Positions 830 to 43,328 of a stretch of 64,000 nucleotides of DNA are shown piece after piece; within the stretch, counting starts at the first letter, position 1; each line of letters begins with the position of its first letter. The DNA is from Prosthecobacter sp. (GTDB lineage: Bacteria > Verrucomicrobiota > Verrucomicrobiia > Verrucomicrobiales > Verrucomicrobiaceae). The notes under the pieces are model-generated. The model did not search any database. It saw nothing but the letters and a program-made list of their open reading frames with translations, and had not been told where the DNA came from. The translations under genes and the position numbers were made by a program. The stretch is taken from assembly GCA_019186985.1 (NCBI GenBank), contig JABARQ010000015.1, positions 93,196 through 157,195 of the forward strand, read 5' to 3'.

Positions 830-2083
830 TCAGGGATGAACCATGACCGTCAGCGGAGCCAGGATGACCCTGCCATCAATGCGGACTTGCGCATAAAAGC
901 GGAGCTGCCCGGCCTCTGGTGAATAAATCTTGAAGACAAGCGCAGGTCCGCCGCGCGCATCCTCGCGCAAAATGTCGCCTCCGACTGGGTGCAGCTGCAG
1001 CACGGTGCCTGTGTCGGTGAAAAAGCCGTGAAGATGGGCAAAAGCCTGATGCACCGGCTCCAGACGTGTCACCGGTTGTCCGGCCAGATCTGAGACCTGC
1101 AGTTGCAGGGCCTGTGTCTGACCTGCCCGCAGCTGGTTTCCCCGGGCTCCTTTCACGGTCAGGCTGAAACGAAACCCCTCGGCTTGCACGCTCATGGAAG
1201 AATCCCCCGCCGGACGAGGCGGCAAAGCCGCTCCCTCCACCTTCAGCAGGGCAAAGGGATATTCTGGCAGCCCTGTTTCCGCAGGGGTGGCTCCAGCCAG
1301 GAGCCGGTAGTCGCCGCCATGAGCCGGAGTAAAGGCCGCCTCATAACGCCCACCGCCCTTTGTTGTGGCGGTGAGATGATGAAATTCCTCGAAGCAAGGA
1401 CCGGCAACCATGACCTGGACGGCCTGGGCATGCATCAGCCACAGGTCCGTCTCCTCCACCGGCCGGCCGTCCAGGGTGCGCAGTTCAAACTCAAGCCGCA
1501 CCTCCTCTCCCGCCCTGGCGGCAAGCGGCCGGGAGATGACCATCTTCACCGTCGGCTTTTCAGGCCGTGCATGAATAAAACTGTAGGGTATGCGGCGGGG
1601 CTTCAGCGGACGCTGGCAGCTGGCGCAGTTTTCCCCGCCCTTGCCGGTCACCTCGCCATGCAGGGGACATGAATGGATCTCCGCCGACCTCAGCTCCGGC
1701 CTGAGGCCGTCCGCCACGTCGTCCAGCAGCCTGCGCAATGCACGGAAGGAAACGGACAGGGCGCCTGCGTTGTCAGCCATGCTGTGCCTGGCGATCTGAT
1801 TGACCAGCTGAAAGGCCTGCACGGACTGCGGCTCGGTCAGCATCATGCCTCCGTCCGCTCCGGTCTGGTTCGCCATCAGGCGCAGGGATGGACTGATCAG
1901 TGAAATCTGCCCCGCCACCTCCAGCGCACGCCTTTCGCGGTCGAGACGGTCAACGTTTGCGGTCACCTGCCGGATCACATTCCAGGCCTCCTCAACGGTC
2001 TGAGGCTGAAGGACGCGTTGCGGCACCGCGACATCGGCAGGCAACGAGGATGCCAGGACCATGAAGAGAAGGAAACGCAGCAT
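830..2083 (-). CDS. Secreted protein with CxxH/CxxC heavy-metal-binding motif
   Basis: 417 residues. The start is taken at the ATG at 2083 because it opens a signal peptide (MLRFLLFMVLASSLPADVA); the reading frame extends further upstream but that part is antisense to the next gene. Residues ~25-130 look helical. At 138-160 is a motif SCPLHG...CASC (C139, H142, C153, C156) of the kind in the small heavy-metal-binding domain of copper and other metal resistance proteins (CPMHP...CPKC). Two beta domains follow; each carries a His-containing stretch (LMHAQAVQVMVAG; HQAFAHLHGF...LHP) resembling the repeated domains found after such motifs. It is divergent from the MbnP-MbnH fusion with only 69 bases between starts, so the two probably share a promoter region and a role in periplasmic metal, likely copper, handling. 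The metal is inferred. Confidence 0.7.
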   Translation of the reverse strand: MLRFLLFMVLASSLPADVAVPQRVLQPQTVEEAWNVIRQVTANVDRLDRERRALEVAGQISLISPSLRLMANQTGADGGMMLTEPQSVQAFQLVNQIARHSMADNAGALSVSFRALRRLLDDVADGLRPELRSAEIHSCPLHGEVTGKGGENCASCQRPLKPRRIPYSFIHARPEKPTVKMVISRPLAARAGEEVRLEFELRTLDGRPVEETDLWLMHAQAVQVMVAGPCFEEFHHLTATTKGGGRYEAAFTPAHGGDYRLLAGATPAETGLPEYPFALLKVEGAALPPRPAGDSSMSVQAEGFRFSLTVKGARGNQLRAGQTQALQLQVSDLAGQPVTRLEPVHQAFAHLHGFFTDTGTVLQLHPVGGDILREDARGGPALVFKIYSPEAGQLRFYAQVRIDGRVILAPLTVMVHP

Positions 2084-2152
2084 GCGGGCATCATGGGATC
2101 CTGAACCTGGATTGTCGAATGACGAATCATCCTCTGCGGTTATGATGACTCC

Positions 2153-3886
2153 ATGAACGTCTGGAAATGGCTTCCCTGGATGTGCCTCAGCTCCGTCGCC
2201 ACCGCCGGCGACCTGTCGCTGCGGATCATCCCCTGCGTGCCGGCCGGCGAACTGAAGCTGAACGGCGCCCCCCTCCAAAACACGGCCGGTGAATCCTGGA
2301 CGGTGACCCGGCTCAGCTACCTCGTCAGCGGCGCCGCGCTGCGTTGCAAGGACGGCTCCTGGCTTGAACTGGAAGGCGGGCCGGCCTGGCTGAACGCGGC
2401 GACCGGCAGAAATCTCGTGCCGGTGAAAAACATCCAGGAGGGCGAATACACCGCCCTGAGATTCCACATCGGCCTCACCGAGGATGACAACCAGCTGGAC
2501 CCCTCCAGCCGAGGCCCTGACCATCCCCTGAACCCGCGCCTCAACGGCCTTCACTGGAGCTGGCAGGGCGGCTACATCTTCCTGGCCCTGGAAGGCATGT
2601 GGAAAGGCCGCTCCGATGAAATGATGGGCTACTCCTTCCATCTTGGCCGTCAGCCTTTCCGGACCGCCATCACCGTCGAGGGCCCCTGGAAAATCTCCGC
2701 TCAGGCGATGACAGCGGAACTGAGGCTGGACCTGGCCAGGCTGCTTTCAGGCCTTTCATTCGCAAGGGACGGCATGACAACGCACGCCCGGGAAGGCGAC
2801 CCCCTGGCGCTCCGGCTTCAGGAAAACCTGCGCCGTTCCTTCTCCCTTGTCTCGCTGCGTCCTGACAGCGACGGCGTCAGCTCCACCCCTGCACCAGCCG
2901 CAGCCCTTCTGGCGGCGGGCACCCTGCCCGGCCCAGGCCGTGGCTTCCCCCAGCCCCGGCTTCCAGCGGACAATCCGCTGACGCCTGACCGCGTGGAGCT
3001 TGGCAGGAGGCTCTTTCATGACACGCGCCTGTCACGCAACCAGCAGATCTCCTGCGCCTCCTGCCATCAGCCAGCCAGCGCCCTGGATGATCCAAGACGT
3101 TTCAGCCCGGGCGTGGAGGGCAGGACGGGCGACCGGAACTCCATGCCTCTCTTCAACCTGGCCTGGAAGGACACCTTCTTCTGGGACGGCCGCGCGGGAA
3201 GCCTGCGCCAGCAGGCGCTGATGCCCATCATCGACCACCGCGAAATGGATGAGACCGTGGAAAATGTCGTGATGAAGCTCAGCCAGGATGAGTCCATGAA
3301 GTCAGCCTTCAGGAAGGCCTTTGGCACGCCTGATGTGACGGCGGAGAGGCTGGGCCTCGCCGTGGAGGCCTTTCTGCTGACCCTCACCTCCCATGACTCG
3401 AGGTTTGACAGGGCCCAGCGCGGCGAAGTGAAGCTGACGCCTGAAGAGCAGCGCGGCTTTGAACTCTTCATGATGGAGCGCGAACCCAGGCTCGGCACGA
3501 TGGGCGCGGACTGCTTCCACTGCCATGGCGGCGCCTTGTTCACCGACCACGGCTTCCGCAACAACGGGCTCGCCATCGATGAACACGACACCGGCAGGCA
3601 CCGGGTGACCGGAGCCGCGCTTGACCGCGGAACCTTTGTGACGCCGAGCCTGCGCAACATCGCCCTCACCGCACCCTACATGCATGACGGCCGCTTTGCC
3701 ACCCTGGAGGAGGTGCTGGACCATTACAGCGAGGGTGTTCAGCGTACGGTCACCCTTGATCCAAACCTGGCCAAGCACCCCGACGGCGGGCTGCATCTGA
3801 CGGCGGAGGAGAAACGCTGCGTGATCGCCTTCCTCAGGACCCTGACGGACGACCGCTTTGCCAGGGGCCTGCCTTCGTCGCCTTGA
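2153..3886 (+). CDS. MbnP-like copper protein fused to MbnH/MauG-like di-haem oxidase
   Basis: 577 residues, exported (signal peptide ~1-18). Residues ~20-230 match the MbnP family: N-terminal beta sandwich, a TRLSYLVSGAAL strand and the characteristic LHWSWQGGY segment (W135, W137). After a Pro/Ala-rich linker (~245-270), residues ~275-577 are a di-haem cytochrome c peroxidase/MauG-type domain with haem motifs CASCH (C301-H305) and CFHCH (C454-H458) and a conserved PSLRNIALTAPYMHDGRF segment. In known systems MbnH is a separate di-haem enzyme that oxidises a Trp of MbnP to kynurenine, creating a copper site. Here enzyme and substrate are apparently one chain, an uncommon arrangement that needs a database check. 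It is divergent from the CxxH/CxxC protein. Copper binding and Trp oxidation are inferences from the families. Confidence 0.85.
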   Translation: MNVWKWLPWMCLSSVATAGDLSLRIIPCVPAGELKLNGAPLQNTAGESWTVTRLSYLVSGAALRCKDGSWLELEGGPAWLNAATGRNLVPVKNIQEGEYTALRFHIGLTEDDNQLDPSSRGPDHPLNPRLNGLHWSWQGGYIFLALEGMWKGRSDEMMGYSFHLGRQPFRTAITVEGPWKISAQAMTAELRLDLARLLSGLSFARDGMTTHAREGDPLALRLQENLRRSFSLVSLRPDSDGVSSTPAPAAALLAAGTLPGPGRGFPQPRLPADNPLTPDRVELGRRLFHDTRLSRNQQISCASCHQPASALDDPRRFSPGVEGRTGDRNSMPLFNLAWKDTFFWDGRAGSLRQQALMPIIDHREMDETVENVVMKLSQDESMKSAFRKAFGTPDVTAERLGLAVEAFLLTLTSHDSRFDRAQRGEVKLTPEEQRGFELFMMEREPRLGTMGADCFHCHGGALFTDHGFRNNGLAIDEHDTGRHRVTGAALDRGTFVTPSLRNIALTAPYMHDGRFATLEEVLDHYSEGVQRTVTLDPNLAKHPDGGLHLTAEEKRCVIAFLRTLTDDRFARGLPSSP

Positions 3887-4581: not shown

Positions 4582-6168
4582 TCATGCCGGTTTCATGAAG
4601 CCGATGTAGCCGCCTGCGTGAGAGGTGTTGAAGCGGCTGATGTTGGGAAGCACCGAACTGATGTCGCCCGAGCTCAGGCCGTACCACTTCGCCAGCGTCG
4701 CCGTGTGCTCATCGACCGAGAGCGTCGGGATCCAGCGGCCGATGCCGGTGTCATCCGGGCCGCTGATGGCGAAGTTCTGCAGCTTGCCATAGACCTTGCC
4801 GCCATCCACGCCGCCGCCGACGACGATGTGGTGCGAGCCCCAGCCATGGTCGCTGCCCTGGCTGTTGGAAGGGAAGGTGCGGGAGAAGTCCGAGGCGGTG
4901 AAGGCGGTGACCTTGTCACCCAGCCCGAGCTGCTCCATGGCGCGATGGAAGGCGAACATGGCCTGGCTGACCTGACGCAGCAGCCCATAATGCGTCCCGC
5001 CCGTGTTGGTGGGCTGGTTGGTGAAGCCGTTGCCGTCCACCTGCGCGGTGTGGGTGTCGAAGCCGCCAAGGGAGCAGTAGAAGATCTGCCGTTTCATGTT
5101 GAAGCCTGACGGCCCCGAGGAGGCGATGAGGCGGGCGATCATCTTGAGCTGGATGCCAAGCGACGTGTTGGGGAAGCCCCCCAGGCCGTTGGGCTGCGCG
5201 GCGGCGGAGTAGATTCCCGTCAGGCCGGTGTTCCAGCGCCAGGGAGCGGCGGCATCCTGGGAGGCATACGAGGAGGGGGAATCCGTCGGATCACGGTAGT
5301 TCGTGATGTTGTTGTTGAGCAGGTCACCGGTGAAGACGGCGTTGTCGAGCACGCTCGCATAAGCCTGACGCTGCAGGTTGGCATGACCCAGGTCCAGGAT
5401 GCCCTGGAGGGCCTTCTGACGCACGCCGGTGCCGCCCATCAGGCCGCCGCCGCTGCCGGTGGCGTTGAAGATGACCGCCCCGTTCGTGGAGACATGGTAC
5501 TGGGAGACCAGGTTGCCGATCTGGAGCGTGTTCGCCCCGTTCAGCGAAACCGACATGGAGATCTGTCCTGATGGATTGGCCACCGAATTGTAAATGTCGG
5601 CGATGCGGCCGCCCCAGCCCGTCGCAGGCGGCTGGTCAGGGATCGAAGTCTGCCACTGCGTCACCTGGTCGCTGTGGGAGAAAAGCTGCGGCGGGCGGTA
5701 GGCGGCAAGTCCGGAGGTGTACTGCGCCTTGGTCGTCGGGCGCACGAGGGTGCCCACGTTCTGCACCACGGCCAGCTTGCCTTCACCAAAGAGGGTCTGC
5801 AGGTCGGCGCAGCCTGGATGGAAGCCATAGGTGCGCCCCTGGTAGGTGTAGGCAGGGTCGCTGACATTGGGGCCCGTCCTCAGCGTCAGCAGGGAGCTCT
5901 GGGGAAGCACCAGGTTGCCTCGCGCCGTCGCATATTCGTTGTAGGTCGTGTTGTCGGTCGGCACGAACCAGTTGTTGGCGTCATTGCCGCCGCCAAGGAA
6001 GACGCAGACCAGCGCCTTGTAGTCGGAAGGCACGTCGGCGGCCATGAGGGAGTTCATGAGCCGCAGGTCGCGGATGGTGCTGACGCCTGCCGCCGCACCA
6101 CCCAGGATGGATGCACGCTGGAGAAAGCTGCGACGAGTCAGGATGTTGGGTGCTTTGCTCGTGTTCAT
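4582..6168 (-). CDS. DUF1501 protein, Tat-exported
   Basis: 528 residues. It has a twin-arginine signal (TRRSFLQRASILGGAAAG) and the DUF1501 fold (related to alkaline phosphatase/sulfatase): ALVCVFLGGGNDANNWFVPTD near the N terminus, SLGGFDTHTAQV and FTASDFSRTFPSNSQGSDHGWGSH in the C-terminal third. The start is set at the ATG at 6168; a TTG at 6177 overlaps the stop of the upstream DUF1800 gene (TTGA) and is an alternative. DUF1501 and DUF1800 genes occur as pairs in Planctomycetota and Verrucomicrobiota. The physiological substrate is not established; the protein is predicted to act outside the cytoplasmic membrane. Confidence 0.92.
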   Translation of the reverse strand: MNTSKAPNILTRRSFLQRASILGGAAAGVSTIRDLRLMNSLMAADVPSDYKALVCVFLGGGNDANNWFVPTDNTTYNEYATARGNLVLPQSSLLTLRTGPNVSDPAYTYQGRTYGFHPGCADLQTLFGEGKLAVVQNVGTLVRPTTKAQYTSGLAAYRPPQLFSHSDQVTQWQTSIPDQPPATGWGGRIADIYNSVANPSGQISMSVSLNGANTLQIGNLVSQYHVSTNGAVIFNATGSGGGLMGGTGVRQKALQGILDLGHANLQRQAYASVLDNAVFTGDLLNNNITNYRDPTDSPSSYASQDAAAPWRWNTGLTGIYSAAAQPNGLGGFPNTSLGIQLKMIARLIASSGPSGFNMKRQIFYCSLGGFDTHTAQVDGNGFTNQPTNTGGTHYGLLRQVSQAMFAFHRAMEQLGLGDKVTAFTASDFSRTFPSNSQGSDHGWGSHHIVVGGGVDGGKVYGKLQNFAISGPDDTGIGRWIPTLSVDEHTATLAKWYGLSSGDISSVLPNISRFNTSHAGGYIGFMKPA

Positions 6169-6173
6169 GAGGA

Positions 6174-9100
6174 TCAACGCTGGATGGTGAAGTCGGGGCT
6201 CGTCAGGATGAGGTGCAGGATCGCACGGATGCGGTCGCGGCGCTCGGTGGCGGAGGGCGTGCCGCTGCCCTGGTTGTAGATGATCTGGGAGGCATGGGCG
6301 TTCGCAACTCCGGTGACGGTGGGGGCGCCGGTGCAGTTCACCCCGGTGATGGTGAAGGTGCTGGCGCCGGTGACGGTGATGACGCGCGCGGTGGAGGTGC
6401 TGTTAAGGGAGGCGCTGAAGGTTCCATCAGTCACACCGCTGACGCAGACGGACTGCCCCGTGGTGTATCCATGCGGACGCGCGGTGGTCACGGTGCAGGG
6501 GCTTGTCACGGAGATGGACTGGATCGGCAGGGCCACCAGATCACGCATGATCTGCTTTGCTTCGGCAGGCATCTGACCCGCCATCAGCAGGGTGGTCAGC
6601 TGGTCGATCAGCCGGTCGATGTTCTGGTTGTGCGTCCAGGGCACCCCCGTGTTGACCGGCGCGCCCAGGCCGAGGTTGGAAGCATTCCCCGTCACCCAGG
6701 TGGAGTAGTCCAGGGTGATGGCGTTGTTGCCGGTGTTGAAGCTGCTGAAGCCGTTGGTCGTGCCCGAGTTGAACACTCCATTATAGAGGTAGTTGGCCTG
6801 GCGGATGACCCCGGTCTCCGCCGTCAGCTGGAACTCCGGCGTGGTGATCCCCTGGGAGGCCAGAAGGCCGGGGAACTTGTACTCCGGCAGGAAGTAGTTG
6901 AAGACCGTGTCGGCGTTGACCGGCGACTGGTCGAGGTCTGCATCCGTGCTGCCGACCTGGTAGGTGCTGGAGCGTGAATTGATGGTGCCGGAACGGGTCA
7001 GCGGCTGTGACACCAGCGGGAACTGATAGACGCTGTTGTTGCCCTGGCTGTTGCTGTAGCCGGTGGTCGCGCTGGAGATGAGGAAGGTGTAGGTCTTCAG
7101 GTCAGGAACGGTGTCCACCGTGGCGACGACATCGATGGGAATCGGGGTCACCTGGGCTGCATAAACATTCAGCTGCACCTGGTCTCCGACCTTCAGGTGA
7201 TGGTCCTGGTCGGTCCTCATGGTCACACGCCGGTCATTCGGCGCAGCCAGCCCGGATCCGGCAATGGTCATGCTTCCAGGAGAGAAGCGTGGAATCATGC
7301 AGTTGCCGGAGCGGACTGCCGGGTCCGTGGTGCTGACCGTGATGGTGAAGGCGTTGCCGTTTTCACCACCGGAAGTGGGGCTGGTGTTGGTGATGGTGTA
7401 AACCTGGCCGTCAATGGCCGCGCCGTTGGCCGTGCCGGTGGTGAAGTCCATGTAGACCTGGTTGCCGCTCTGCAGCCAGTGGTTGCCCATGGTGACGGTG
7501 CAGGTGGTGGAGTTGGCGGGAATGCTGTAGGTGCCGTTGGCCCAGCCCGTGGCCTGGACGGTGAAGGTGTCCGTGTCCACCACGGTCACGCCATAGGCGG
7601 CGGTCATCGGGGCGGGGATGCCGTTCGTCACGTCCGAGGAGCCTGGCGTGAACTCCAGAAGCACGTTGTTGCCTGTGGCCAGCTTGTGCGCCGCACTGGT
7701 GTCCACCGTGATCGTGCGGGTGCCGGTCTGGCTGTAGGTGCCGGTGTAGGTGCCGGGGCGGAAGGCCCTGCCGGCGGCGGCGACACGGAGCAGAGGCTCG
7801 CGCTGCTTGCCATAGGCAGGCTTGCTGACCATGTCTGGGCTGCGGGCTTCGTAGTCGAGCAGGATGGCCTTGATGACCGCCTGCATGTCACCCCGGACTC
7901 CCGCACCGTTGTCGTTGAACTTCTGCACCACGCGGTAGAGGTAGTCGCGCGAGGGATGGCTGGTGACCATGCGCTGGATGAGCTGACGGCAGAGGAAGGG
8001 GCCGCAGTTGGGGTGGTTGAAGAGCTGGTCATGGGACAGCTCCAGCTCCTTGTCCGGCAGCTCCTTGTACTCCGTCTGGTTCCAGTGGGTGGTGTTGTGA
8101 ACCGCAATCGGGTCAAGCGGCACGCCGCCAAGGCTCGAGATGCCGGGCATCACTTCATTGTTCAGCACGCGCTTGGGACCGGTGTAGTGGCGGGCGGGCA
8201 CCTCGCGCATCAGCCGCATCCAGTTGGCAGGTGCGTTGATCCCCGTGCGGTCGGCACCATCGTATCCATCCGTCCAGCCGGTGAACACATGGGCAAAGCC
8301 GACGATCTCGCGCTGCGTGTAGGTGTCGATCGGATGATCGTTTGAGTTCAGGACGAGGGTGCCGTCCGGCCACATCCGGTAGAGGCCGATGGAGAAGAGC
8401 TGCTTGATCTCACGGGCGTAGTTTTCATTCGGGATGCGGCCCAGCGTGGGATCGGGCTTGTCATTGTTCCGCATGTCCAGGTAACGGCCCATGGCGGGGG
8501 TGAGCGTCGTGGTCTCCAGGATCTCCCGGAAGTTGCCAAACGCCCCCTCGGTGAGCTTGTCATAGAAGTAGGCGATCGCCTCGCCGCGGTTGTCAAGCGG
8601 CCCCTGGCCGGAGATCACATGAACCTGGCTGAGCGCGAAGGCGACACGCTGGCGGAGCTGGTCCTGGCCGCTGATGGAGTTGCGCCACCAGGAGTTGAAG
8701 AACAGCGTCTCGTCATAGGCGGAGCCGCCCTGCGCATCCGCTCGCCGTGTGCGCAGGACTTCATCCAGGGAGTTGGTCGCCGGCTTCGAGAACTGGTCCT
8801 CGATCCACATTTCATAGCGGGTCTTGCCGCCGGACGGCACGATGGCTTTCAGCGCGGCGATGTCGGCCACGCCGGGACCAAAGGAGGCCTGGGCCAGGAA
8901 GCGCGCGGCACCGGCGTCCGTGTTGCTGTCATCCGTCCACGAAGGCGGGGCCGGAGGCGGCGTGAAGGTGCGTGAACCGTTGGCCAGGGTGAAGTTGCCC
9001 CGGATTTCACCACCAGGGTTCAGGGCCGTGTGCAGGTTGATGTAGGCCTTGCCCTGCTTGATCAGCTCGCGGACGTCGTTAAGCGCAAGCGTTCCCTGCG

Positions 9101-12100
9101 GGGCAAGCGTCCACTTGTGATACAGGAACCTGCCTGCCGAATCAAACTTGGGCCCATCGCCTGCAGGCGGCTCGGTGCCGTCATAAATGATGAATGACTG
9201 GTGGTTCAGATAGGGGTCCGAATGCACATGCCAGTCCGTCGGGTCAATGACGCCGTTGACACCGCTGCTGCCGTCGGCGGCCACGGGCTGCCCGGCCACC
9301 GCACCGTCAACGTCACCGGACAGGCCGCTGTATTTGACCGTGACATAGGCCACAGTTTCATCGGCGCTCAGCCTCATGGTGGCCGTGCCGACACCCTTCA
9401 GGCTGCCGCCCGGAGGATCGATGGCGCCGTTCTGACGCAGCAGCGTGGCCACATACAAGGTCCCCGGCATCGAGGCGAGCGACGGAGCCTCATAAGGTGA
9501 CAGCACATAACCTGGCACCACCTCGCTCGGCACGGTTGTCGCCTCACCAGGCTTGGACCAGCCGACGGCCAGGTGATCCGCCCCCGTCGCGGACTTGTGC
9601 AGCACTTCAAAGTAATAGCGCTTCCCCTGTTCAAGGGCCATCCACGGCGACTTCACCGCCGTGCCCCAGTCGAGCGGCGTCGTGCCTCCGCCGGTCACGG
9701 TGGCGCGCTTGAAGCTGTTCACCACCTCCTCGTCGTTGGAGAGCCAGAACTCGGCGGAGTCGCTCGCCGAAAGCCAGAAGTAATAGTTTCCGGTGACAGG
9801 CGCCGTGATGTAGCCGCGTATGCGCGCACCAAAGTTGTCGGCCGCGCTTGTCGGCGCCGCAAGGGTTGACAGGCTGCTGGTGCTCGTCGGCGTGGTGGAC
9901 AGCGGGATGGTCGGGATCGATGTGCCGTTGATGCCCGTCCAGAGTTCACGGCCAACCGTCGCACCGGTGTCCTCCACCTCCAGGTTCAGCACGGATGTGC
10001 TGGTTCCGTTCGGACCGCTGATGGTGATGGTCAACTGATAGCTTCCAGCGGAGCCCGGAGGCGGCGTGCCGCTGATGACCCCGCCGCCGTAGCTCAGCCA
10101 CGCGGGCAGGCCCGAGACGCTGACCGAGCCGCCGTTGCTGCCCAGGACGGCATAGGAAAACGCCCCCCCCACAAGGCCCGTCGCCTGGATTTCACCCAGG
10201 TGGGCCGGAGGAGCCTGCGGGACACTGGTCGGATAAAGGCGCTCCGTCGGGATGATCTGCTTCGGCTGGCTCGGGCTGTACCAGTAAAGCAGGCAGCGCG
10301 CATAACTCGTGTTCTCCCAGTAGTCGAGCTGGATGTCGTAACGGGTGCCGCCCACGACGGGCAGGCGGACGTAGCGCTCATTGCCCATGGAGGCCCAGTC
10401 CTTGAGCGGCTTGTTGACGATCTCAATGTTGGCGTTGCCCGAGCTGGCGGGATGCTTGCCGATGCCGTGGTTCACCGTGAAGCTGCTGGAGGTCACGTCA
10501 CTGATCACGAGGTCGAAGGTGTCGGAGAAGCTGATGTTGCCGGTGCCCGTGGCAAAGAGGTTTGCCCCGACCGAAACGGTGAAGGTCGTGCTGGTCGCCG
10601 CCGTGATGGTGTAGGGCAGGCTCGCCAGGGAGGTCAGGTTGCCGCTGGTCGGATCCAGGAAAACGGTCTGGCCGACCTGATGGCCGCCGGCCGTGAAGTT
10701 CGTCATCGCGGAATAGGTCACCACCATGTCCCCGGTGCCGGCGTCGTAGCTGTAGGTGGCCGTGCCGCCGTAGTTCAGGTTGCCGCTGCTCGGATCCAGA
10801 CGGACGGTTTCACCAACGATGAAGCTTCCCGGCTTGATGGCCATGTTCGTGTAGGTGACCACCGTGTTGCCGGTGACAGGATCATAGGTGTAGGTCCCCG
10901 TGCCGGTGTTTGTTGCAACATGCGTCTTAAGCTCCTGCACCTGGCCGTTGATGCGCAGGGTCGCGCCGTCGTCCGCATGCACCACAAAGGTGTACTCCTC
11001 GGTGAACTGCGGCTGCACCTGGCCGGACCAGCGCACGGAGAAGGTGTCCGGATTGATCTGGGCCACGTCAGGCGTGCCCGTGCCCCAGATGCCGTTGTTG
11101 CCGGTGGTCACCGCCGCATCCACGCCGATGCGCGCCGGCGCCCCGGTGAAGGTGGTGTTGGTGTAAATTTTGTTATACACGCCCGTGGTCCCGCTGTTGC
11201 TGCGGTTTTCCAGGAGGCAGGCGGTGTTTGAGCCCTGGTTGCCGGGCAGGGTGGCACCCGTGCTGTTGACCGTGACGGTGAAGGTGTTGGCGTCAGGAAC
11301 TGTCGCCACCGTGTAGGTCCCGCTGTAGCCGTTGACGTCGACGGTGTTGGGCGTGAACAGCGTGCCTGCGGTAAAGGCCAGGGTGACGCTGTTGCCGACG
11401 CTCAGGCCGTGGCCTGTCAGGGCGATGGTGGCCGTGCCCGTCGTGACGGGCGTGCCACGCGTGAAGGCGTAGGTGGCCGCCTGGGTGTGGGTGAACTGCT
11501 CCCCCTGCGGAATGTTGACGAACGTGCCTCCGTCACGGCTCCACTGCAGGCGGCAGCGGGCGGCGTCCACCGTCTCCACATGCTCCACCCGCATCCGGTA
11601 ACGCTCGGCCGCCGAAGCCGGAACCACCAGGCTGTAGGAGGAGCTGATCTTGAAGGTTCCCACGGTCGCGGCGCTGTCCCAGCCGTGTTCGATGATCTGC
11701 TCGCCCGGCAGGTCAAAGGTGCCGTTCCTGTCCAGGTCCAGCAGCACCCGCGCCTTGTCGTCCGCGTCCAGCTGGAAGCGGTAGCTGCCCGCCGTGGCCG
11801 GGCTGAGGTACATTTCAAAGGTGTCGGAGTAGTTGTCCGGGACATTCGTCGCCGTGGTCCCTGCGGCTGCGGAAATGGTCACGCCGTTCGGCGTTCCGTA
11901 GCCCCAGTCGTTGCCAACGGTTGGGTCAATGCGCTCCACGACACCCGGATGCACCGGCTGGATGCTGAAGTTGCAGGTGCTGCTGCTGCTGGCGGGAAGC
12001 CCGGCACCCGGTGGCAGCGTGCAGGTGAAGCTCGTAGCGTTCTTGGAGGCCACCACATAGTTGAAATGATTGTAGGTGGCCGTGTTCAGGTTGCCCCCGT

Positions 12101-13352
12101 TGAAGGACAGCTTCACCTCACCCCCGACCTGGACCGCCGCCAGCACGTCCGCCAGCCGCTGAGTGGTCAGGCCGGTCGGAGTCACCAACACGGATCCCGT
12201 GAAATTCGGCGTCACGCCGGACCGGGTGTAGCTGTAGCTGCCGACATCCCCGAAGTTCAGGGCGTTGTTGGCGGTGCTGCTGGCATTGTCATAATAGCGC
12301 GCGGTCAGGCCGGTCCCCGTCGGATTCGTGGCGTTGGCGATGATTACCGTCGCCGTGGCATGATTGGGATCAATCACCGGGGCCGCATAACTGCCGGCGG
12401 TTGCCGAGGCCAGGGTCGCTATCACGGACTCGCTGCCTTCCACCTCGGTGTCCGATTCCGGATTGACGTACAATTGCTTCGACTTCTCCCCGGAACCAAA
12501 GTTCAGGATCGTGCCTGAGGAAAGGGTGTAATCCCCGCCTGCCCCGCCGCCAGCGCCGCCGCCGCCCCCAGGCGCAGCCGTTCCCGCAATGCTCAGGTTG
12601 ACCGTGACCGGCAGCAGGCTGCGCGTGCGGGTGATCGTGAAAAAGCCGGGCTGCTGGCCGTCCTCCTGGGCCAGGGTGCCGGTGCTGGCGATGCTGATCA
12701 CGTCGGCCACCGACACTTCGGCGTTTGCCAGGGTGCCGTCCAGGACTCCGTCGTCATCCGTGTCCGCCTTGGCCGGGTCCAGCCCCATGAGGCCCTCCGC
12801 CCAGGTCGAGACGCCGTCCGAGTCCGAGTCCAGGTCGCTCACCTCCAGCTTGTAGAACTTGGTCGCCCCAACCCTCGCCACGGTCAGGCTCTGCGAGCTC
12901 ACGTCACTCGTCGGACGATGATCCGCCTGGGGAACCCCCAGCACCACGCCGCCGATGGCGGTGATGTCTTCCGCGCCGCTGAACGTTCCCGTCACCGCCG
13001 TGTCGCTCACGACCCGGTACTTCTTCCCGGCCTTCTGGGTGAAGTAAAAGGTCACCGTCGACGGCGTCAGCACCATGTTGCCCACCTTCAGGCTGTCGGA
13101 GGCGTTCCTCGGGTTCGTGCCCGCAACCGACTCCACGCCGTTCGTGTTGCCATCCCTGTCCTCATCCCCTCCGGCGGCAAGGCCCCAGGCGTCAAACACG
13201 GCCTGCCAGACATCATCAAGTCCGTCAGGACCTCCCTGCCCCGGGCCGGAACTGTAGCTGTCCATCACGGGCGCGGCCGATGCTGGAACTGAAAGACCGA
13301 TGCAGGACACCATGGATGCAAGGACGGCGAAACGTCGCATGAAGGTACGCAT
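6174..13352 (-). CDS. Giant multidomain DUF1800 surface protein
   Basis: 2392 residues from the ATG at 13352, chosen because it starts the signal peptide (MRTFMRRFAVLASMVSCIGLS...ASA); the open frame extends to 13556 without a signal. Order: calcium-binding type-3-thrombospondin-like segments (DEDRDGNTNGVES, DSDSDGVSTWAEG, DTDDDGVLDG); a Calx-beta-like domain with a Gly-rich loop; at least three PA14-like domains (e.g. GTGLTARYYDN..., YTFVVHADDGATLRINGQ, GNYYFWLSASDSAEFWLSND); a putative Ig domain (LPAWLSYGGGVISGTPP); a CHRD domain (INLHTALNPGGEIRGNF); then DUF1800 from ~residue 1470 (RQRVAFALSQV, NYAREIKQLFSIGLY). The DUF1800 part is interrupted by beta repeats of the form TGxxVxLxF...FTVxV at roughly 7000-7770 and 6290-6530. 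It is followed by DUF1501 with a 7-base overlap-scale junction. Probably a large cell-surface protein; activity unknown. Confidence 0.9.
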   Translation of the reverse strand: MRTFMRRFAVLASMVSCIGLSVPASAAPVMDSYSSGPGQGGPDGLDDVWQAVFDAWGLAAGGDEDRDGNTNGVESVAGTNPRNASDSLKVGNMVLTPSTVTFYFTQKAGKKYRVVSDTAVTGTFSGAEDITAIGGVVLGVPQADHRPTSDVSSQSLTVARVGATKFYKLEVSDLDSDSDGVSTWAEGLMGLDPAKADTDDDGVLDGTLANAEVSVADVISIASTGTLAQEDGQQPGFFTITRTRSLLPVTVNLSIAGTAAPGGGGGAGGGAGGDYTLSSGTILNFGSGEKSKQLYVNPESDTEVEGSESVIATLASATAGSYAAPVIDPNHATATVIIANATNPTGTGLTARYYDNASSTANNALNFGDVGSYSYTRSGVTPNFTGSVLVTPTGLTTQRLADVLAAVQVGGEVKLSFNGGNLNTATYNHFNYVVASKNATSFTCTLPPGAGLPASSSSTCNFSIQPVHPGVVERIDPTVGNDWGYGTPNGVTISAAAGTTATNVPDNYSDTFEMYLSPATAGSYRFQLDADDKARVLLDLDRNGTFDLPGEQIIEHGWDSAATVGTFKISSSYSLVVPASAAERYRMRVEHVETVDAARCRLQWSRDGGTFVNIPQGEQFTHTQAATYAFTRGTPVTTGTATIALTGHGLSVGNSVTLAFTAGTLFTPNTVDVNGYSGTYTVATVPDANTFTVTVNSTGATLPGNQGSNTACLLENRSNSGTTGVYNKIYTNTTFTGAPARIGVDAAVTTGNNGIWGTGTPDVAQINPDTFSVRWSGQVQPQFTEEYTFVVHADDGATLRINGQVQELKTHVATNTGTGTYTYDPVTGNTVVTYTNMAIKPGSFIVGETVRLDPSSGNLNYGGTATYSYDAGTGDMVVTYSAMTNFTAGGHQVGQTVFLDPTSGNLTSLASLPYTITAATSTTFTVSVGANLFATGTGNISFSDTFDLVISDVTSSSFTVNHGIGKHPASSGNANIEIVNKPLKDWASMGNERYVRLPVVGGTRYDIQLDYWENTSYARCLLYWYSPSQPKQIIPTERLYPTSVPQAPPAHLGEIQATGLVGGAFSYAVLGSNGGSVSVSGLPAWLSYGGGVISGTPPPGSAGSYQLTITISGPNGTSTSVLNLEVEDTGATVGRELWTGINGTSIPTIPLSTTPTSTSSLSTLAAPTSAADNFGARIRGYITAPVTGNYYFWLSASDSAEFWLSNDEEVVNSFKRATVTGGGTTPLDWGTAVKSPWMALEQGKRYYFEVLHKSATGADHLAVGWSKPGEATTVPSEVVPGYVLSPYEAPSLASMPGTLYVATLLRQNGAIDPPGGSLKGVGTATMRLSADETVAYVTVKYSGLSGDVDGAVAGQPVAADGSSGVNGVIDPTDWHVHSDPYLNHQSFIIYDGTEPPAGDGPKFDSAGRFLYHKWTLAPQGTLALNDVRELIKQGKAYINLHTALNPGGEIRGNFTLANGSRTFTPPPAPPSWTDDSNTDAGAARFLAQASFGPGVADIAALKAIVPSGGKTRYEMWIEDQFSKPATNSLDEVLRTRRADAQGGSAYDETLFFNSWWRNSISGQDQLRQRVAFALSQVHVISGQGPLDNRGEAIAYFYDKLTEGAFGNFREILETTTLTPAMGRYLDMRNNDKPDPTLGRIPNENYAREIKQLFSIGLYRMWPDGTLVLNSNDHPIDTYTQREIVGFAHVFTGWTDGYDGADRTGINAPANWMRLMREVPARHYTGPKRVLNNEVMPGISSLGGVPLDPIAVHNTTHWNQTEYKELPDKELELSHDQLFNHPNCGPFLCRQLIQRMVTSHPSRDYLYRVVQKFNDNGAGVRGDMQAVIKAILLDYEARSPDMVSKPAYGKQREPLLRVAAAGRAFRPGTYTGTYSQTGTRTITVDTSAAHKLATGNNVLLEFTPGSSDVTNGIPAPMTAAYGVTVVDTDTFTVQATGWANGTYSIPANSTTCTVTMGNHWLQSGNQVYMDFTTGTANGAAIDGQVYTITNTSPTSGGENGNAFTITVSTTDPAVRSGNCMIPRFSPGSMTIAGSGLAAPNDRRVTMRTDQDHHLKVGDQVQLNVYAAQVTPIPIDVVATVDTVPDLKTYTFLISSATTGYSNSQGNNSVYQFPLVSQPLTRSGTINSRSSTYQVGSTDADLDQSPVNADTVFNYFLPEYKFPGLLASQGITTPEFQLTAETGVIRQANYLYNGVFNSGTTNGFSSFNTGNNAITLDYSTWVTGNASNLGLGAPVNTGVPWTHNQNIDRLIDQLTTLLMAGQMPAEAKQIMRDLVALPIQSISVTSPCTVTTARPHGYTTGQSVCVSGVTDGTFSASLNSTSTARVITVTGASTFTITGVNCTGAPTVTGVANAHASQIIYNQGSGTPSATERRDRIRAILHLILTSPDFTIQR

Positions 13353-13595
13353 AAGCAGGTTCGGAGAGAAGGGTTGGTTTGCCTGGCCTTGGACGGGATC
13401 ACGGACTGCCAGGCGTTGTCCGCCAGATAAATGCGTGGAATACCAAAAAAGGCGGAAAGGTGTCAATAGTCGAATAAATGGTTGGGCCAACTCCGCCCCG
13501 GAAGGGAGGAAAAAAATCTCGACTGCCCGCCGGAATTTGAGTAACGATCCGGGCAATTCGGGGATTAATCATCAAAGCCAACCCGACTTACACCC

Positions 13596-36959: not shown

Positions 36960-37409
36960 CTACTTTTTCGCCGCCTCAGGCCTGCATTTGCAGATCCACT
37001 CGGGCGACTGGCACTCCTCGCAGGTTGCCGTGTTGTATTCAAACCGGGCTGTCACGGCTTTCTCGTCCGGGCTGTTCCTGAACTGCAGGATCAGCCATTC
37101 CCCCGGTTTCACGGAGGGCAGCACGAAGCCCCGGGCGTCCCGGCCAACCTCCAGCTTCCGGGGCGCCTCACGGTCACCGGTGGTCGCCGTCAATTTTTGT
37201 TCGGCCAGCGCCAGGGGCTTCATGTCCTTGTCGAGAAGGGCGATGTGGAACCTGTCATCCTTCACGGTGAGTTCGCCATGCAGGGTTTCATTCTTGCTGA
37301 ATTCAAGGATGCGCCCGCCGTTGGGCCCGAGTTCAACGCCCTCGTGGGCGAAGGACAGGGAGGCGAGAAGGCTGAGGCAGAGGAGGTGGAGTCGGTTGGT
37401 TGGTTTCAT
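36960..37409 (-). CDS. Secreted protein with C-terminal Cys cluster, metal-efflux operon
   Basis: 149 residues. The ATG at 37409 overlaps the stop of the RND pump gene (ATGA), so translation is likely coupled; the longer open frame upstream is a shadow of that gene. Signal peptide ~1-21, then HEGVELGPNGGRILEF, a beta-rich centre, and a tail with four cysteines, CEECQSPEWICKC (C130, C133, C140, C142). The GPNGG segment recalls the start of periplasmic metal-efflux adaptor domains. The Cys pattern suggests binding of a soft metal ion in the periplasm. It is the last gene of the efflux operon. Function inferred from context only. Confidence 0.8.
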   Translation of the reverse strand: MKPTNRLHLLCLSLLASLSFAHEGVELGPNGGRILEFSKNETLHGELTVKDDRFHIALLDKDMKPLALAEQKLTATTGDREAPRKLEVGRDARGFVLPSVKPGEWLILQFRNSPDEKAVTARFEYNTATCEECQSPEWICKCRPEAAKK

Positions 37410-40400
37410 GGGTGGGTTTGCTGGATGGACTTGAACGCGGCCTTCCGGCCAAAGTGGTAGAACACGGCGGGGGTGATGAGCAGGTCGAGCAGGGTCGAGG
37501 ACACCAGCCCGCCCGCGATGACGACCGCCACGGGATGCAGGATCTCCTTGCCCGGCTGGCCGGCGGCGAGCACGAGCGGCACGACGGCGATGCCTGCGCT
37601 GAGCGCGGTCATGAGCACCGGCACAAGCCTTTCCAGCGTGCCGCGCTCCACCATCTGCCAGGTGAACGGCTCCCCGTCCTCGCGCATGAGATGAAGGTAA
37701 TGGCTGATCATCATGATGCCGTTCCGGGCCGCCACGCCGCCGACGGCGATGAAGCCGACCAGTGTGGCGATGCTGATGTTGCCGATCATGAGCCAGGTCA
37801 GCGTCAGGCCGCCCATGACCGCCAGCGGGATGTTGAGAAGGACCATCAGGGCAAGGCGCAGGCTGCGGAAGCATCCGTAGAGCAGCAGGGTGACCACGAC
37901 CAGCACCAGGGCCGAGTGCAGCGCGATGCGCCGCGAAGCCTGCTCCTGGGCACGCGCCTCGCCCTCGATGCTGAGGTGATAGCCCGCTGGCAGCTCAAGC
38001 CTTTCCTTCAGGGCCTTCTCAAGCTTCTCCACCAGGCCGGAGACATCACGCGTGGAGGTGTTCATGGCCACCACCACACGACGCTGGGTGTTTTCACGGT
38101 TGATGACGTTCGGCCCCTGGGCCTCCCGCACATCCGCGACAAGCTCAAGGGGGATGCGCCTGCCTCCGGAAACCTCCACCGGCAGCTCGCGCAGCTTCTG
38201 CGGGTCGTTGCGCGCCTCCTCAGGCAGGCGCAGCACAAGATCCACCGGCCGCTGGCCGTCACGAAGCTCTGCAAGCGTCCTGCCCCCGACCAGCGCACTC
38301 ACCTGCCTGTTGACCTCCGCCGGCTGCACGCCGTGGGCCAGGGCCCGCTCACGGTCCACCTCGATGCGCAGCTGGGGAATGGGCACCTGGGGCTCCATCA
38401 TCACGTCGGCCAAACCAGGCATGCTTTCAGCGATCTGCGCAGTCCTTTCCCCAAGACTGCGCAGCACCGCGAGGTCCGGCCCGAACACCTTCACGGCCAC
38501 CTTGGCCGAAACGCCGCTGAGCATGTGGGAAAGCCGGTGCCCGATGGGCTGGCCGACGCTGGCATAGGTGCCTGGCAGCGTCCCCAGCAGCCTGCGGATC
38601 TCGGCAAACACCTCCTGCCTCGGGCGTCCGCCTTCCTTGAACTCCACATCAAGCTCGTTGACGCTCACCGGCATCACATGGTCGTCCCGCTCGGCACGTC
38701 CTGCGCGCCTGCCGATGCTCCGGATCTCCGGCACCTGCCGCAGCAGCCTGACGGCGGCCTCGCCAACCTCGTTGGACCAGGCCAGCGAACTCCCCGGCGG
38801 CCCAACCAATGAGAGGGTGGCGCTGCCCTCGTTGAACGCGGGCAAAAACTCCCTGCCCATGCCCGGCGCCAGCAGCAGCGAGGCGATCAGCGCCATGCCG
38901 GACAGGCCGAGCACCAGCATCGGCTGGGCCCTGGCAAACCGCAGGAACGTGCGTGATGCCAGCCACTTCAGGGCCCGCACCAGGACAGGGTCCCGATGCC
39001 CGCCCGAGGGGCCCTTCGGCTTCAAAAGGACTGAGCACAGCACGGGTATCACCGTGAGGCTGACCAGAAAGGAGGCTGCCATGCTGGTGATCGTGGCGAT
39101 GGCGATGGGCATGAACAGCCTGCCCTCCAGTCCCTCAAGCGCCATCAGCGGCGTGAAGACCAGGATGATGAGGAGCGTGGCGTAAAGGATGGAGCCGCGC
39201 ACCTCGCTGGAGGCGGAGGCGATGACCTCAAGATGATGCGGCCTTTCCGCAGGCCCGGAGGACGCATCCATGCGGACGGGTTCGCCCGCGCCACGAAGAC
39301 GTCGCCAGACGTTCTCGACATCCACGATCGCATCATCCACCACCATGCCGATCGCCACGGCCAGGCCGCCGAGAGTCATGCTGTTGACGCTGATCCCGAA
39401 GAGCTGGAAGATCAGAACCGTGACGGCAAACGACAACGGGATGGCCGTCAGCGTGATGAAGGTGGTGCGCAGGTTCAGCAGGAACAGCAGCAGCACGACG
39501 GCCACCATCACCGCACCGTCACGAATGGCCTCCTGCAGGTTGTGGATGGCATTTTCGATGAAGTCCCCCTGCCGGAACAGCACCTCCAGGCTGACATCGG
39601 CCGGCAGCGTCGGCTGGAGTTCCTTCAGCGCCGTCTCGACGGCCCCGGTGAGCTTGAGAGTGTCAAAGCCCGGACCCTTGTCGATGCTGAGGATGACGCC
39701 CATCCTGCCGTTCACGCTCGCGTCACCACGCATCGGCTGCACGCCTTCGCCCAGCACCGCCACGTCACTCAGCAGCACCGGCCTGTCATCGAGCGTCTTC
39801 ACCACCGTCCTTTCAAGCGCATGAAGGCTGGTGGTCATGGCCAGGTTGCGCACCATGACCTCGCGAGCCCCTCCTTGAAGATAACCGCTGGTCGTGTTCC
39901 CCGCCGCCGCTGACACCGCCTTCTCAAGCTCGTCCAAGGTGACGCCAAAGGCGGTCATTCGGGCGATGTCTGGACGCACCTGCAGCTGCCTCACTCCGCC
40001 GCCAATCGTCAGAACTTCGGAAACACCCGGAATGCTCTGCAGCCGGCGGCGCAGGGTCCAGTCGGCGAGGCTGCGCAGCTCCATGGGTGAATGACTGCCG
40101 TCCGTGCTGTGAACACCGACCAGCAGCACCTCGCCCATCAGCGAGGAAACCGGAGTCAGTCCTGGCCTGGCGGTTTCCGGAAGGCTGCCCAGAACGCCCT
40201 GAAGGCGCTCCTGCACCAGCTGGCGCGCCCGGTAGATGTCGGCGTTCCATTGAAACTCAACAAAGATCAGGGACAGGCCGACATCAGAACTGGAGCGCAG
40301 GCGGTCGATGCCGGACACGCCCTGCACCGCTGATTCAATGGGCTGGGTCACCAGCGCCTCCACCTCCTCGGGAGCAAGGCCCGGAGCCTCGGTCAGGATC

Positions 40401-40543
40401 GTGACCGTGGGCTTGGTCATGTCCGGAAGCACCTCGACCGGCAGCCGCAGGACGGCCTGCAGCCCGAGCACCACCACCAGCAGCGCCGCGGCGACGACCA
40501 GCGGACGATGCGCCAGGGAGGATCGGATCAGGATGTTCAACAT
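37406..40543 (-). CDS. Heavy-metal RND efflux pump, inner-membrane component (CzcA/CusA family)
   Basis: 1045 residues from the ATG at 40543. Typical heavy-metal-efflux RND architecture: N-terminal helix (LAHRPLVVAAALLVVVLGLQAV), porter domains with VEVLPDMTKPTVTI and FVEFQWNADIYRARQLV, and the TM4 segment GGLAVAIGMVVDDAIVDVENVWRRL with acidic residues for proton coupling, and a second half with IALHSALVLVVVTLLLYGCF and GFIAVGGVAARNGIMMISHY. It would export divalent or monovalent metal ions across the envelope with the adaptor and TolC protein encoded upstream. Which metal is not clear; the TM4 sequence does not match the best-known Czc or Cus versions exactly. Start lies 4 bases after the adaptor stop. 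Confidence 0.92.
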   Translation of the reverse strand: MLNILIRSSLAHRPLVVAAALLVVVLGLQAVLRLPVEVLPDMTKPTVTILTEAPGLAPEEVEALVTQPIESAVQGVSGIDRLRSSSDVGLSLIFVEFQWNADIYRARQLVQERLQGVLGSLPETARPGLTPVSSLMGEVLLVGVHSTDGSHSPMELRSLADWTLRRRLQSIPGVSEVLTIGGGVRQLQVRPDIARMTAFGVTLDELEKAVSAAAGNTTSGYLQGGAREVMVRNLAMTTSLHALERTVVKTLDDRPVLLSDVAVLGEGVQPMRGDASVNGRMGVILSIDKGPGFDTLKLTGAVETALKELQPTLPADVSLEVLFRQGDFIENAIHNLQEAIRDGAVMVAVVLLLFLLNLRTTFITLTAIPLSFAVTVLIFQLFGISVNSMTLGGLAVAIGMVVDDAIVDVENVWRRLRGAGEPVRMDASSGPAERPHHLEVIASASSEVRGSILYATLLIILVFTPLMALEGLEGRLFMPIAIATITSMAASFLVSLTVIPVLCSVLLKPKGPSGGHRDPVLVRALKWLASRTFLRFARAQPMLVLGLSGMALIASLLLAPGMGREFLPAFNEGSATLSLVGPPGSSLAWSNEVGEAAVRLLRQVPEIRSIGRRAGRAERDDHVMPVSVNELDVEFKEGGRPRQEVFAEIRRLLGTLPGTYASVGQPIGHRLSHMLSGVSAKVAVKVFGPDLAVLRSLGERTAQIAESMPGLADVMMEPQVPIPQLRIEVDRERALAHGVQPAEVNRQVSALVGGRTLAELRDGQRPVDLVLRLPEEARNDPQKLRELPVEVSGGRRIPLELVADVREAQGPNVINRENTQRRVVVAMNTSTRDVSGLVEKLEKALKERLELPAGYHLSIEGEARAQEQASRRIALHSALVLVVVTLLLYGCFRSLRLALMVLLNIPLAVMGGLTLTWLMIGNISIATLVGFIAVGGVAARNGIMMISHYLHLMREDGEPFTWQMVERGTLERLVPVLMTALSAGIAVVPLVLAAGQPGKEILHPVAVVIAGGLVSSTLLDLLITPAVFYHFGRKAAFKSIQQTHP

Positions 40544-40547
40544 GGGA

Positions 40548-41663: not shown

Positions 41664-41669
41664 GAGGGT

Positions 41670-42020
41670 TCAGAGTTCGACGCCCGTCTTCTTCAGCAGC
41701 GCCATGGTGAGAAAATAGAGGATGACCGTGAGCAGGATCCCCGCCCCAAAGGCGGGCCAGAAACCGCCAAGCTTCCGGATCAGCCAGGGCATGAGGAGGA
41801 ACATCGGCAGCGTCGGCAGAACGAACCAGAAGGTGCCGAAGGCATGACGGCCGATGAGCGCCGAGTCCCTGGTCTCGGCATACAGCCAGATGAAGGCCAG
41901 CAGGGAGGTCAGCGGCAGCGAGTGAATGATGCTGGCCGCCGCGTTGTTGCGCTTGGCGATTTCGGTGACGGCGACGATCACGCCGGCGGAAAGGAAAAGC
42001 TTGAGAAGGTAGTAGGCCAT
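41670..42020 (-). CDS. DUF3147 family membrane protein
   Basis: 116 residues with four predicted membrane segments (LLKLFLSAGVIVAVTEIA; SLPLTSLLAFIWLYAE; TFWFVLPTLPMFLLMPWLI; AFGAGILLTVILYFLTMALL). The pattern matches DUF3147, small proteins often encoded with CzcCBA-type pumps. Its role is unknown, perhaps assisting or modulating the pump. It sits between the TolC-family gene and the adaptor gene. Confidence 0.82.
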   Translation of the reverse strand: MAYYLLKLFLSAGVIVAVTEIAKRNNAAASIIHSLPLTSLLAFIWLYAETRDSALIGRHAFGTFWFVLPTLPMFLLMPWLIRKLGGFWPAFGAGILLTVILYFLTMALLKKTGVEL

Positions 42021-42043
42021 GAGGATGGAAGGGCTTGTCGTGT

Positions 42044-43252: not shown

Positions 43253-43328
43253 GAGGATGCGGGTTTGAAGGACGGACAGGCATGACCGGCCGTCGTCATG
43301 GACGGCCAGGAACGGGCGGCCTGCCGGC

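What the first reader, a model, noticed from the sequence alone, without database searches (positions are those of the whole stretch)
2153..3886. MbnP and MbnH fused into one exported polypeptide
Seen: an N-terminal MbnP-like domain with the LHWSWQGGY segment (W135, W137), a Pro/Ala linker, and a C-terminal MauG/CcpA-type domain with two CxxCH haem motifs (C301-H305, C454-H458), in one uninterrupted 577-codon frame. Known: separate MbnH enzymes oxidise a Trp of MbnP to kynurenine, which then helps bind copper. Inference: here the modifying enzyme carries its own substrate, allowing intramolecular or stoichiometric one-to-one maturation and possibly a permanent electron-transfer partner.
Basis: partly seen in the sequence, partly recalled or inferred. 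Interest (0 to 1): 0.75.

Follow-up and report, generated by a model that had tools for sequence, protein, structure and literature searches.

The report
Copper protein fused to its modifying enzyme
In Verrucomicrobiota bacteria a copper-binding protein (MbnP) and the two-haem enzyme expected to turn one of its tryptophans into the copper-site residue kynurenine (MbnH-like) are made as one chain, while other phyla examined make them as two neighbouring proteins; this gives a natural single-molecule system for studying the modification.

Summary
ORF 2153-3886 (+) is one uninterrupted 577-codon exported frame. Its N-terminal half is an MbnP domain (Pfam PF20243, E 3e-26; fold match to the MbnP crystal structure 7l6g, Z 17-18). 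Its C-terminal half is a di-haem MauG/MbnH-type enzyme whose closest solved structure is MbnH 6e1c (Z 36). The 6th-ligand position of the second haem carries Tyr, as in MauG and MbnH, not Met as in CcpA peroxidases. The fusion is not peculiar to this window. Every intact MbnP locus examined in Verrucomicrobiota (68 distinct proteins) is fused, whereas Bacteroidota, Gemmatimonadota and the methanotroph/Pseudoalteromonas examples keep two adjacent, often overlapping genes. The fused enzymes form one clade. All 68 keep His134-Trp135, His163, His211, both CxxCH motifs, Trp338, Trp344 and Tyr525. An AlphaFold2 model on 104 homologues has pLDDT 94.8 and pTM 0.92, so the two domains are predicted to pack in one defined arrangement. 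Most likely the haem domain oxidises Trp135 of its own chain to kynurenine to build a copper site. That chemistry is inferred from characterised MbnP/MbnH, not shown here. The copper site probably differs: no Met is conserved, and extra His residues are invariant. New variant of a known kind.

The parts
2153..3886 (+). single ORF encoding the MbnP-MbnH-like fusion, 577 aa plus stop
   Evidence: conserved as a single ORF in 68 distinct homologues
2153..2206 (+). predicted signal peptide (residues 1-18, MNVWKWLPWMCLSSVATA)
   Evidence: sequence; relatives have clear signal peptides at the same place; c-type haem attachment needs export (established knowledge)
2201..2875 (+). MbnP domain (residues 17-241 by fold; Pfam match 20-206)
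   Evidence: PF20243 E 3.1e-26; 7l6g Z 17.1 and 18.4
2552..2563 (+). H134-W135-S136-W137: WxW motif; W135 is the predicted kynurenine site
   Evidence: H134 and W135 68/68, W137 65/68 in fusions; W135, W137 and H163 invariant against canonical MbnP
2639..2641 (+). H163, predicted copper ligand, invariant from fusions to methanotroph MbnP
2783..2785 (+). H211, invariant in all fusions (THx motif); candidate extra copper ligand
   Evidence: 68/68
2873..2938 (+). Pro/Ala-rich linker, variable length in relatives
   Evidence: 25-48 residues for the stretch 233-265, P 14%, A 12%; lowest-confidence stretch of the model
2942..3862 (+). di-haem MbnH/MauG-like domain (residues 264-570)
   Evidence: PF03150; TIGR04039 1.4e-69 as best NCBIfam hit, below cut-off; 6e1c Z 36.2, rmsd 1.8 over 302 residues
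3053..3067 (+). haem motif 1 CASCH (C301-H305), expected high-spin peroxide-binding haem
3164..3184 (+). W338 and W344; W344 is the inter-haem Trp, W338 is shared with MbnH and MauG but not with bCcP
3512..3526 (+). haem motif 2 CFHCH (C454-H458); CxHCH is shared with MbnH (3/4) and Bacteroidota partners (57/63), not with MauG or bCcP
3725..3727 (+). Y525, Tyr at the 6th-ligand position of the second haem (MauG/MbnH type, not Met)
   Evidence: 72/72 fused; own bCcP has Met
830..2083 (-). divergent exported 417-aa protein with a C-x2-H ... C-x2-C motif, head to head with the fusion; predicted metal-binding partner
   Evidence: conserved divergent neighbour in at least 7 relatives; C139, H142, C153, C156 invariant in 8; no Pfam or NCBIfam family
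2084..2152 (.). 69-bp shared intergenic region between the two divergent starts
   Evidence: sequence

Best explanation
The gene encodes an exported, self-maturing copper protein. Shown by sequence and fold: the N-terminal domain is an MbnP-type beta-domain, the C-terminal domain is a di-haem enzyme of the MbnH/MauG type, and the two are made as one chain throughout Verrucomicrobiota. Inferred: in the periplasm the haem domain reacts with H2O2 or O2 plus reductant at the five-coordinate N-terminal haem (CASCH). It stores the oxidising equivalents over both haems (Tyr-His ligated second haem, W344 between them) and withdraws electrons from W135 of the MbnP domain, packed against it, so that W135 becomes kynurenine. 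The kynurenine, H163 and probably one of the invariant or near-invariant H134/H211/H124 then make a Cu(I) site. Fusion fixes enzyme and substrate at one to one and removes the need for an encounter complex. The product is used in copper acquisition or homeostasis at the cell envelope (the weakest step).
For: Both domains by Pfam and fold: 7l6g MbnP Z 17-18 with the next unrelated fold near 5-6, and 6e1c MbnH Z 36. Invariant W135, H163, haem motifs, W344 and Y525 in 68-72 fusions. The Tyr ligand separates Trp-modifying MauG from Met-ligated peroxidases (PMC6405878). Unfused relatives keep the two genes adjacent in the same order, often overlapping: 57 pairs, Methylocystis parvus beside mbnABC, Pseudoalteromonas. 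The fused haem domains form one clade beside MbnP-linked Bacteroidota enzymes (UFBoot 100, SH-aLRT 96). Model pTM 0.92 means a defined inter-domain arrangement. The head-to-head neighbour has a conserved Cys/His metal motif. By established knowledge (Manesis et al. 2021, cited in PMC9426467; paper itself not held), MbnH oxidises the first Trp of WxW in MbnP to kynurenine and this is required for copper binding.
Against: No chemistry was tested. TIGR04052 and TIGR04039 curated cut-offs are not met (38.7 of 140; 234.7 of 362.85). No Met in the MbnP domain is conserved among fusions, although methanotroph MbnP is reported to use a Met ligand. W137 is lost in 3/68. No copper gene family is adjacent in this window; the CusA/CzcA-type efflux operon lies about 33 kb away. 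The W135-haem distance could not be measured.
Confidence: 0.68

Rival explanations
1. Fused precursor later cut: the enzyme modifies its own MbnP domain, then the Pro/Ala-rich linker is cleaved and the mature copper protein is released, as the C-terminal part of MopE is released in Methylococcus.
For: The linker is the only variable, low-confidence stretch; a C-terminal region of intact surface-associated MopE is fully secreted (PMC3621798).
Against: No conserved cleavage motif in the linker; pTM 0.92 suggests the domains stay packed; MopE is a different family.
Confidence: 0.15
2. Permanent redox partner: after maturation the Cu(I)-kynurenine domain donates electrons to the haems and the protein is a copper-dependent peroxidase rather than a one-shot maturase.
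For: Tethering keeps the enzyme attached after its single use; fixed packing; the catalytic peroxidase residues Q354 and E364 are kept in 72/72.
Against: Unfused relatives work as separate proteins; the Tyr ligand is atypical for efficient peroxidases, although BthA combines both (PMC6405878).
Confidence: 0.15
3. The haem domain is an ordinary peroxidase tethered to a copper-binding domain; W135 is structural and is never modified.
For: No modification has been observed in any fused protein; curated MbnH and MbnP cut-offs are not met.
Against: Tyr525 instead of Met, CxHCH, W338 and phylogeny place it with MbnP-linked enzymes and away from bCcP; W135 is 68/68 invariant while the second Trp is not.
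Confidence: 0.12

Closest known systems
MbnP (Methylosinus trichosporium, PDB 7l6g; PF20243 / TIGR04052)
   Same: Fold (Z 17-18), WxW motif, conserved His (H163), Pfam family over cut-off
   Different: Fused to its enzyme; shorter; no four-Cys pattern; no conserved Met; extra invariant His (134, 211); below the TIGR04052 cut-off
MbnH (PDB 6e1c; TIGR04039)
   Same: Closest solved structure (Z 36.2, 39% identity over 302 residues), Tyr at the axial position, CxHCH second haem motif, encoded after MbnP
   Different: Domain of a fusion; below the TIGR04039 cut-off; in the tree outside the canonical MbnH clade, with Bacteroidota MbnP-linked enzymes
MauG / pre-methylamine dehydrogenase
   Same: Di-haem fold, Tyr axial position, inter-haem Trp, enzyme that oxidises Trp of a partner protein
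   Different: No mau genes, different substrate fold, A rather than H in the second haem motif, separate branch in the tree
MopE-SACCP and CorA-CorB of methanotrophs
   Same: Copper-repressed protein with a Trp-derived kynurenine next to Cu(I), paired with a di-haem enzyme (PMC3912023)
   Different: Not markedly similar in sequence to MbnP (PMC3621798); separate genes

Membership tests
MbnP (PF20243) | Pfam gathering score (27 bits) | tested here: met
   92.9 bits, E 3.1e-26, residues 20-206
MbnP (PF20243) | MbnP fold (7l6g) | tested here: met
   Z 17.1 over 213 residues; Z 18.4
MbnP (PF20243) | WxW with invariant first Trp and the conserved His | tested here: met
   W135 and H163 68/68, W137 65/68; same columns invariant with Methylocystis and Pseudoalteromonas MbnP
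MbnP, NCBIfam equivalog TIGR04052 (four-Cys type) | curated score cut-off 140 and the four-Cys pattern in its former name | tested here: not met
   38.7 bits; Cys28 and Cys65 not conserved; so not filed under this narrower model
MbnP, methanotroph type | His plus Met copper ligands | tested here: inconclusive
   His conserved; no Met conserved in fusions, but the ligand Met of 7l6g was not identified here
MbnP | kynurenine formed from first Trp; Cu(I) binding | not testable with these tools
   needs mass spectrometry and metal analysis
MbnH (TIGR04039) | curated score cut-off 362.85 | tested here: not met
   234.7 bits though best NCBIfam hit; called MbnH-like, not MbnH
MbnH (TIGR04039) | di-haem fold, Tyr axial position, CxHCH, encoded with MbnP | tested here: met
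   here encoded in the same frame
MauG (TIGR03791) | curated cut-off 443.85 and mau operon | tested here: not met
   183.4 bits; no mau genes seen beside it; tree places MauG outside
Bacterial cytochrome c peroxidase (CcpA) | Met as 6th ligand of the second haem | tested here: not met
   Tyr525 in 72/72; own-genome bCcP L138 has Met
MopE/CorA | two His plus kynurenine Cu(I) site in the MopE/CorA fold | not tested
   no MopE or CorA sequence was compared; the site type is only suggested by invariant His 134/163/211

The most novel reading that the evidence does not exclude
A phylum-wide class of self-modifying enzymes in which a MauG-type haem domain makes a kynurenine copper site in its own chain and then keeps that copper site as a built-in electron relay, giving a copper-dependent di-haem oxidase or peroxidase rather than a released copper carrier.
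Probability: 0.18. Interest if true: 0.75.

Novelty: new variant of a known kind. Interest (0 to 1): 0.52.

Why it matters
MbnH and MbnP are known as separate proteins that meet to make the modification. The fusion is Rosetta-stone evidence that their pairing is physical and stoichiometric across a whole phylum outside methanotrophs. A single chain with a predicted fixed geometry gives a direct way to ask how a di-haem enzyme oxidises a distant tryptophan, whether it acts in cis, and whether the Met ligand is dispensable. No paper in the open-access library that I searched describes the fusion, but the two key papers (Kenney 2019, Manesis 2021) were not held and may mention it, and the domain architecture may already be visible in domain databases.

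Tried and rejected
Ordinary CcpA peroxidase: rejected on Tyr525, CxHCH and phylogeny. Fusion by sequencing error or local accident: rejected, 68 distinct fused homologues. Apparent exceptions in Verrucomicrobiota: L146 (fusion interrupted by transposases) and L077 (5' half replaced by a transposase) are broken fusions, not separate genes; L047 is one frame-shifted copy. Apparent fusions outside the phylum: the long frames G683 (517 aa), G905 (527 aa) and G671 (402 aa) hold MbnP but no haem domain in the same frame. Long N-terminal extensions in L005, L068, L073 and L074 look like spurious open frames upstream of normal signal peptides; only L141 looks like a real extra domain. First structure model (24 sequences) was poor in the haem domain (mean pLDDT 68.8) and was replaced. 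VIA-align rows for many bCcP chains begin at model residues 115-119 (L133-W137), which hints that the WxW segment lies against the haem domain, but this is too indirect to count as evidence. MbnP-domain tblastn in plasmids found nothing.

Full report
WHAT IS THERE. Pfam assigns PF20243 MbnP to residues 20-206 (92.9 bits, cut-off 27) and PF03150 CCP_MauG from 279 (183 bits, cut-off 25.6). NCBIfam ranks TIGR04039 (MbnH family) first at 234.7 bits, ahead of MauG at 183.4. Neither this nor TIGR04052 (MbnP, 38.7 bits) reaches its curated cut-off, so the protein is MbnP-domain plus MbnH-like rather than a member of those two narrow models.

STRUCTURE. The best sequence match among solved structures is the MbnH structure 6e1c. 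A model built on 24 homologues was weak in the haem half (mean pLDDT 68.8) but already matched 7l6g, MbnP of Methylosinus trichosporium, at Z 17.1 over residues 17-241; the next unrelated folds were near Z 5. A second model on 104 homologues (fusions plus separate Bacteroidota MbnP and haem proteins) reached mean pLDDT 94.8 and pTM 0.92, with the two lowest ten-residue blocks in the linker. Two large domains joined by a floppy linker would be expected to give a much lower pTM (general knowledge), so the prediction is one defined domain-domain arrangement. On that model 6e1c matches at Z 36.2 (302 residues, 1.8 A), MauG at about 31.5 and 7l6g at 18.4. Model coordinates are not released, so the distance from W135 to the haems was not measured.

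HOW WIDESPREAD. In the window's own genome there is one MbnP match, this one. In the same family, 63 of 68 genomes have a match to the query and dozens are full-length fusions, some genomes with two. Across the phylum, 22 of 388 sampled genomes have MbnP over the cut-off, nearly all in frames of 578-814 residues. The named genome collection gave 19 fused loci recorded as Verrucomicrobiota, spanning Verrucomicrobiaceae, Akkermansiaceae, Opitutaceae and subdivision 6, plus one from an unclassified bacterium. Three apparent exceptions are two fusions broken by transposases and one frame-shifted copy. In contrast, 96 of 395 sampled genomes of the Bacteroidota phylum and 14 of 64 of the Gemmatimonadota phylum carry MbnP, with open frames mostly of about 210-400 residues. 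The three longest or oddest checked were not fusions. There the haem gene follows immediately: 57 separate pairs have gaps clustered around zero, many overlapping. Methylocystis parvus has the canonical pair overlapping by 4 bp beside mbnABC and Pseudoalteromonas overlaps by 8 bp. Loss of the first stop and a frame adjustment would suffice to make the fusion (inference).

DESCENT. In trees of the haem domain the fused sequences form one clade (SH-aLRT 97; UFBoot 100 and SH-aLRT 96), counting the transposon-broken L077. The clade lies next to Bacteroidota enzymes encoded directly after MbnP. Canonical MbnH (Methylosinus, Methylocystis, Pseudoalteromonas, Diaphorobacter), MauG and bCcP fall outside. 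This fits one fusion event within the MbnP-partnered branch.

ACTIVE-SITE ANATOMY. Over 68 distinct fusions, H134, W135, H163, H211, C301, C304, H305, W338, W344, C454, H456, C457, H458, Y509 and Y525 are invariant; W137 is lost in three and H124 in two; no Met in the MbnP domain is conserved. H163, W135 and W137 are the same columns as in methanotroph and Pseudoalteromonas MbnP. In the haem domain the 6th-ligand position is Tyr in 72/72 fusions, in MbnH and in MauG, and Met in the genome's own bCcP. CxHCH in the second haem motif is shared with MbnH (3/4) and Bacteroidota partners (57/63) but not with MauG or bCcP. W338 is shared with MbnH (3/4) and MauG but not with bCcP. Tyr-His against Met-His ligation is the recognised difference between Trp-oxidising MauG and peroxidases, and MauG works by long-range electron transfer (PMC6405878).

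MECHANISM. Shown: identity of the domains, the fusion, its conservation, and predicted fixed packing. From established knowledge: MbnH converts the first Trp of the WxW motif in MbnP to kynurenine and this is needed for Cu(I) binding (Manesis et al. 2021, cited in PMC9426467; paper not held); in CorA and MopE a kynurenine lies beside a Cu(I) held by two His (PMC3912023). Inferred: the fused enzyme oxidises W135 of its own chain and the site is completed by H163 with one of H134, H211 or H124. Lack of a conserved Met and extra invariant His suggest a site closer to the two-His type than to the His-Met type reported for methanotroph MbnP (inference; ligands were not located in 7l6g). Whether the domain is later cut off at the linker, or stays as an electron relay, is open.

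CONTEXT. A divergent exported 417-residue protein starts 69 bp upstream. It keeps the same head-to-head position in at least seven relatives with invariant C139, H142, C153, C156 and no known family. Its motif resembles heavy-metal-binding domains (inference). Some distant fusion loci lie by YHYH-domain proteins or a two-component system. A CusA/CzcA-type efflux operon lies about 33 kb downstream in the window, too far to count as linkage.

VERDICT. It is a new variant (single-chain, phylum-wide) of the known MbnP/MbnH pair. I found no description of the fusion in the open-access library, but the main papers could not be read.

Noticed in passing
window 830-2083 (-): Exported 417-aa protein of no known family with invariant C-x2-H ... 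C-x2-C and C-terminal AFAH...LHPxGGD motifs, head to head with the fusion in at least seven relatives; candidate new metal-binding family.
   Followed up: partly
window 37409-43766 (-): CusA/CzcA-type RND heavy-metal efflux operon (pump, adaptor, outer-membrane protein) preceded by a small exported His/Cys-rich protein (43335-43766) of no known family.
   Followed up: partly
L076, L081, L087, L097, L107 and others (Bacteroidota): MbnP followed by two di-haem genes; the first paralogue has lost the inter-haem Trp (Arg in 18 of 22, Ser in 3), while the second keeps it; possible division of labour.
   Followed up: partly
L137:2477-4003 (-), own genome contig C38: A separate MauG/MbnH-like di-haem protein with the axial Tyr and its own unrelated N-terminal extension but no MbnP; substrate unknown.
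   Followed up: partly
L141:2650-6012 (+): A second fusion copy in a same-genus genome that seems to carry a further helical N-terminal domain with its own signal peptide before MbnP.
   Followed up: partly
L146:237-6501: Fusion gene split by transposases, next to a YHYH-domain protein gene; an apparently dead fusion.
   Followed up: partly
L150:3448-4870 (Deinococcus grandis plasmid): A short 'copper resistance protein' gene directly before a MauG-like gene, another possible small-substrate/di-haem pair; Hymenobacter L151:3558-4903 has a similar layout.
   Followed up: no
window 4582-13556 (-): A DUF1501 gene beside a 2460-residue exported protein whose C-terminal part looks like DUF1800 (by eye, not scanned).
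   Followed up: no
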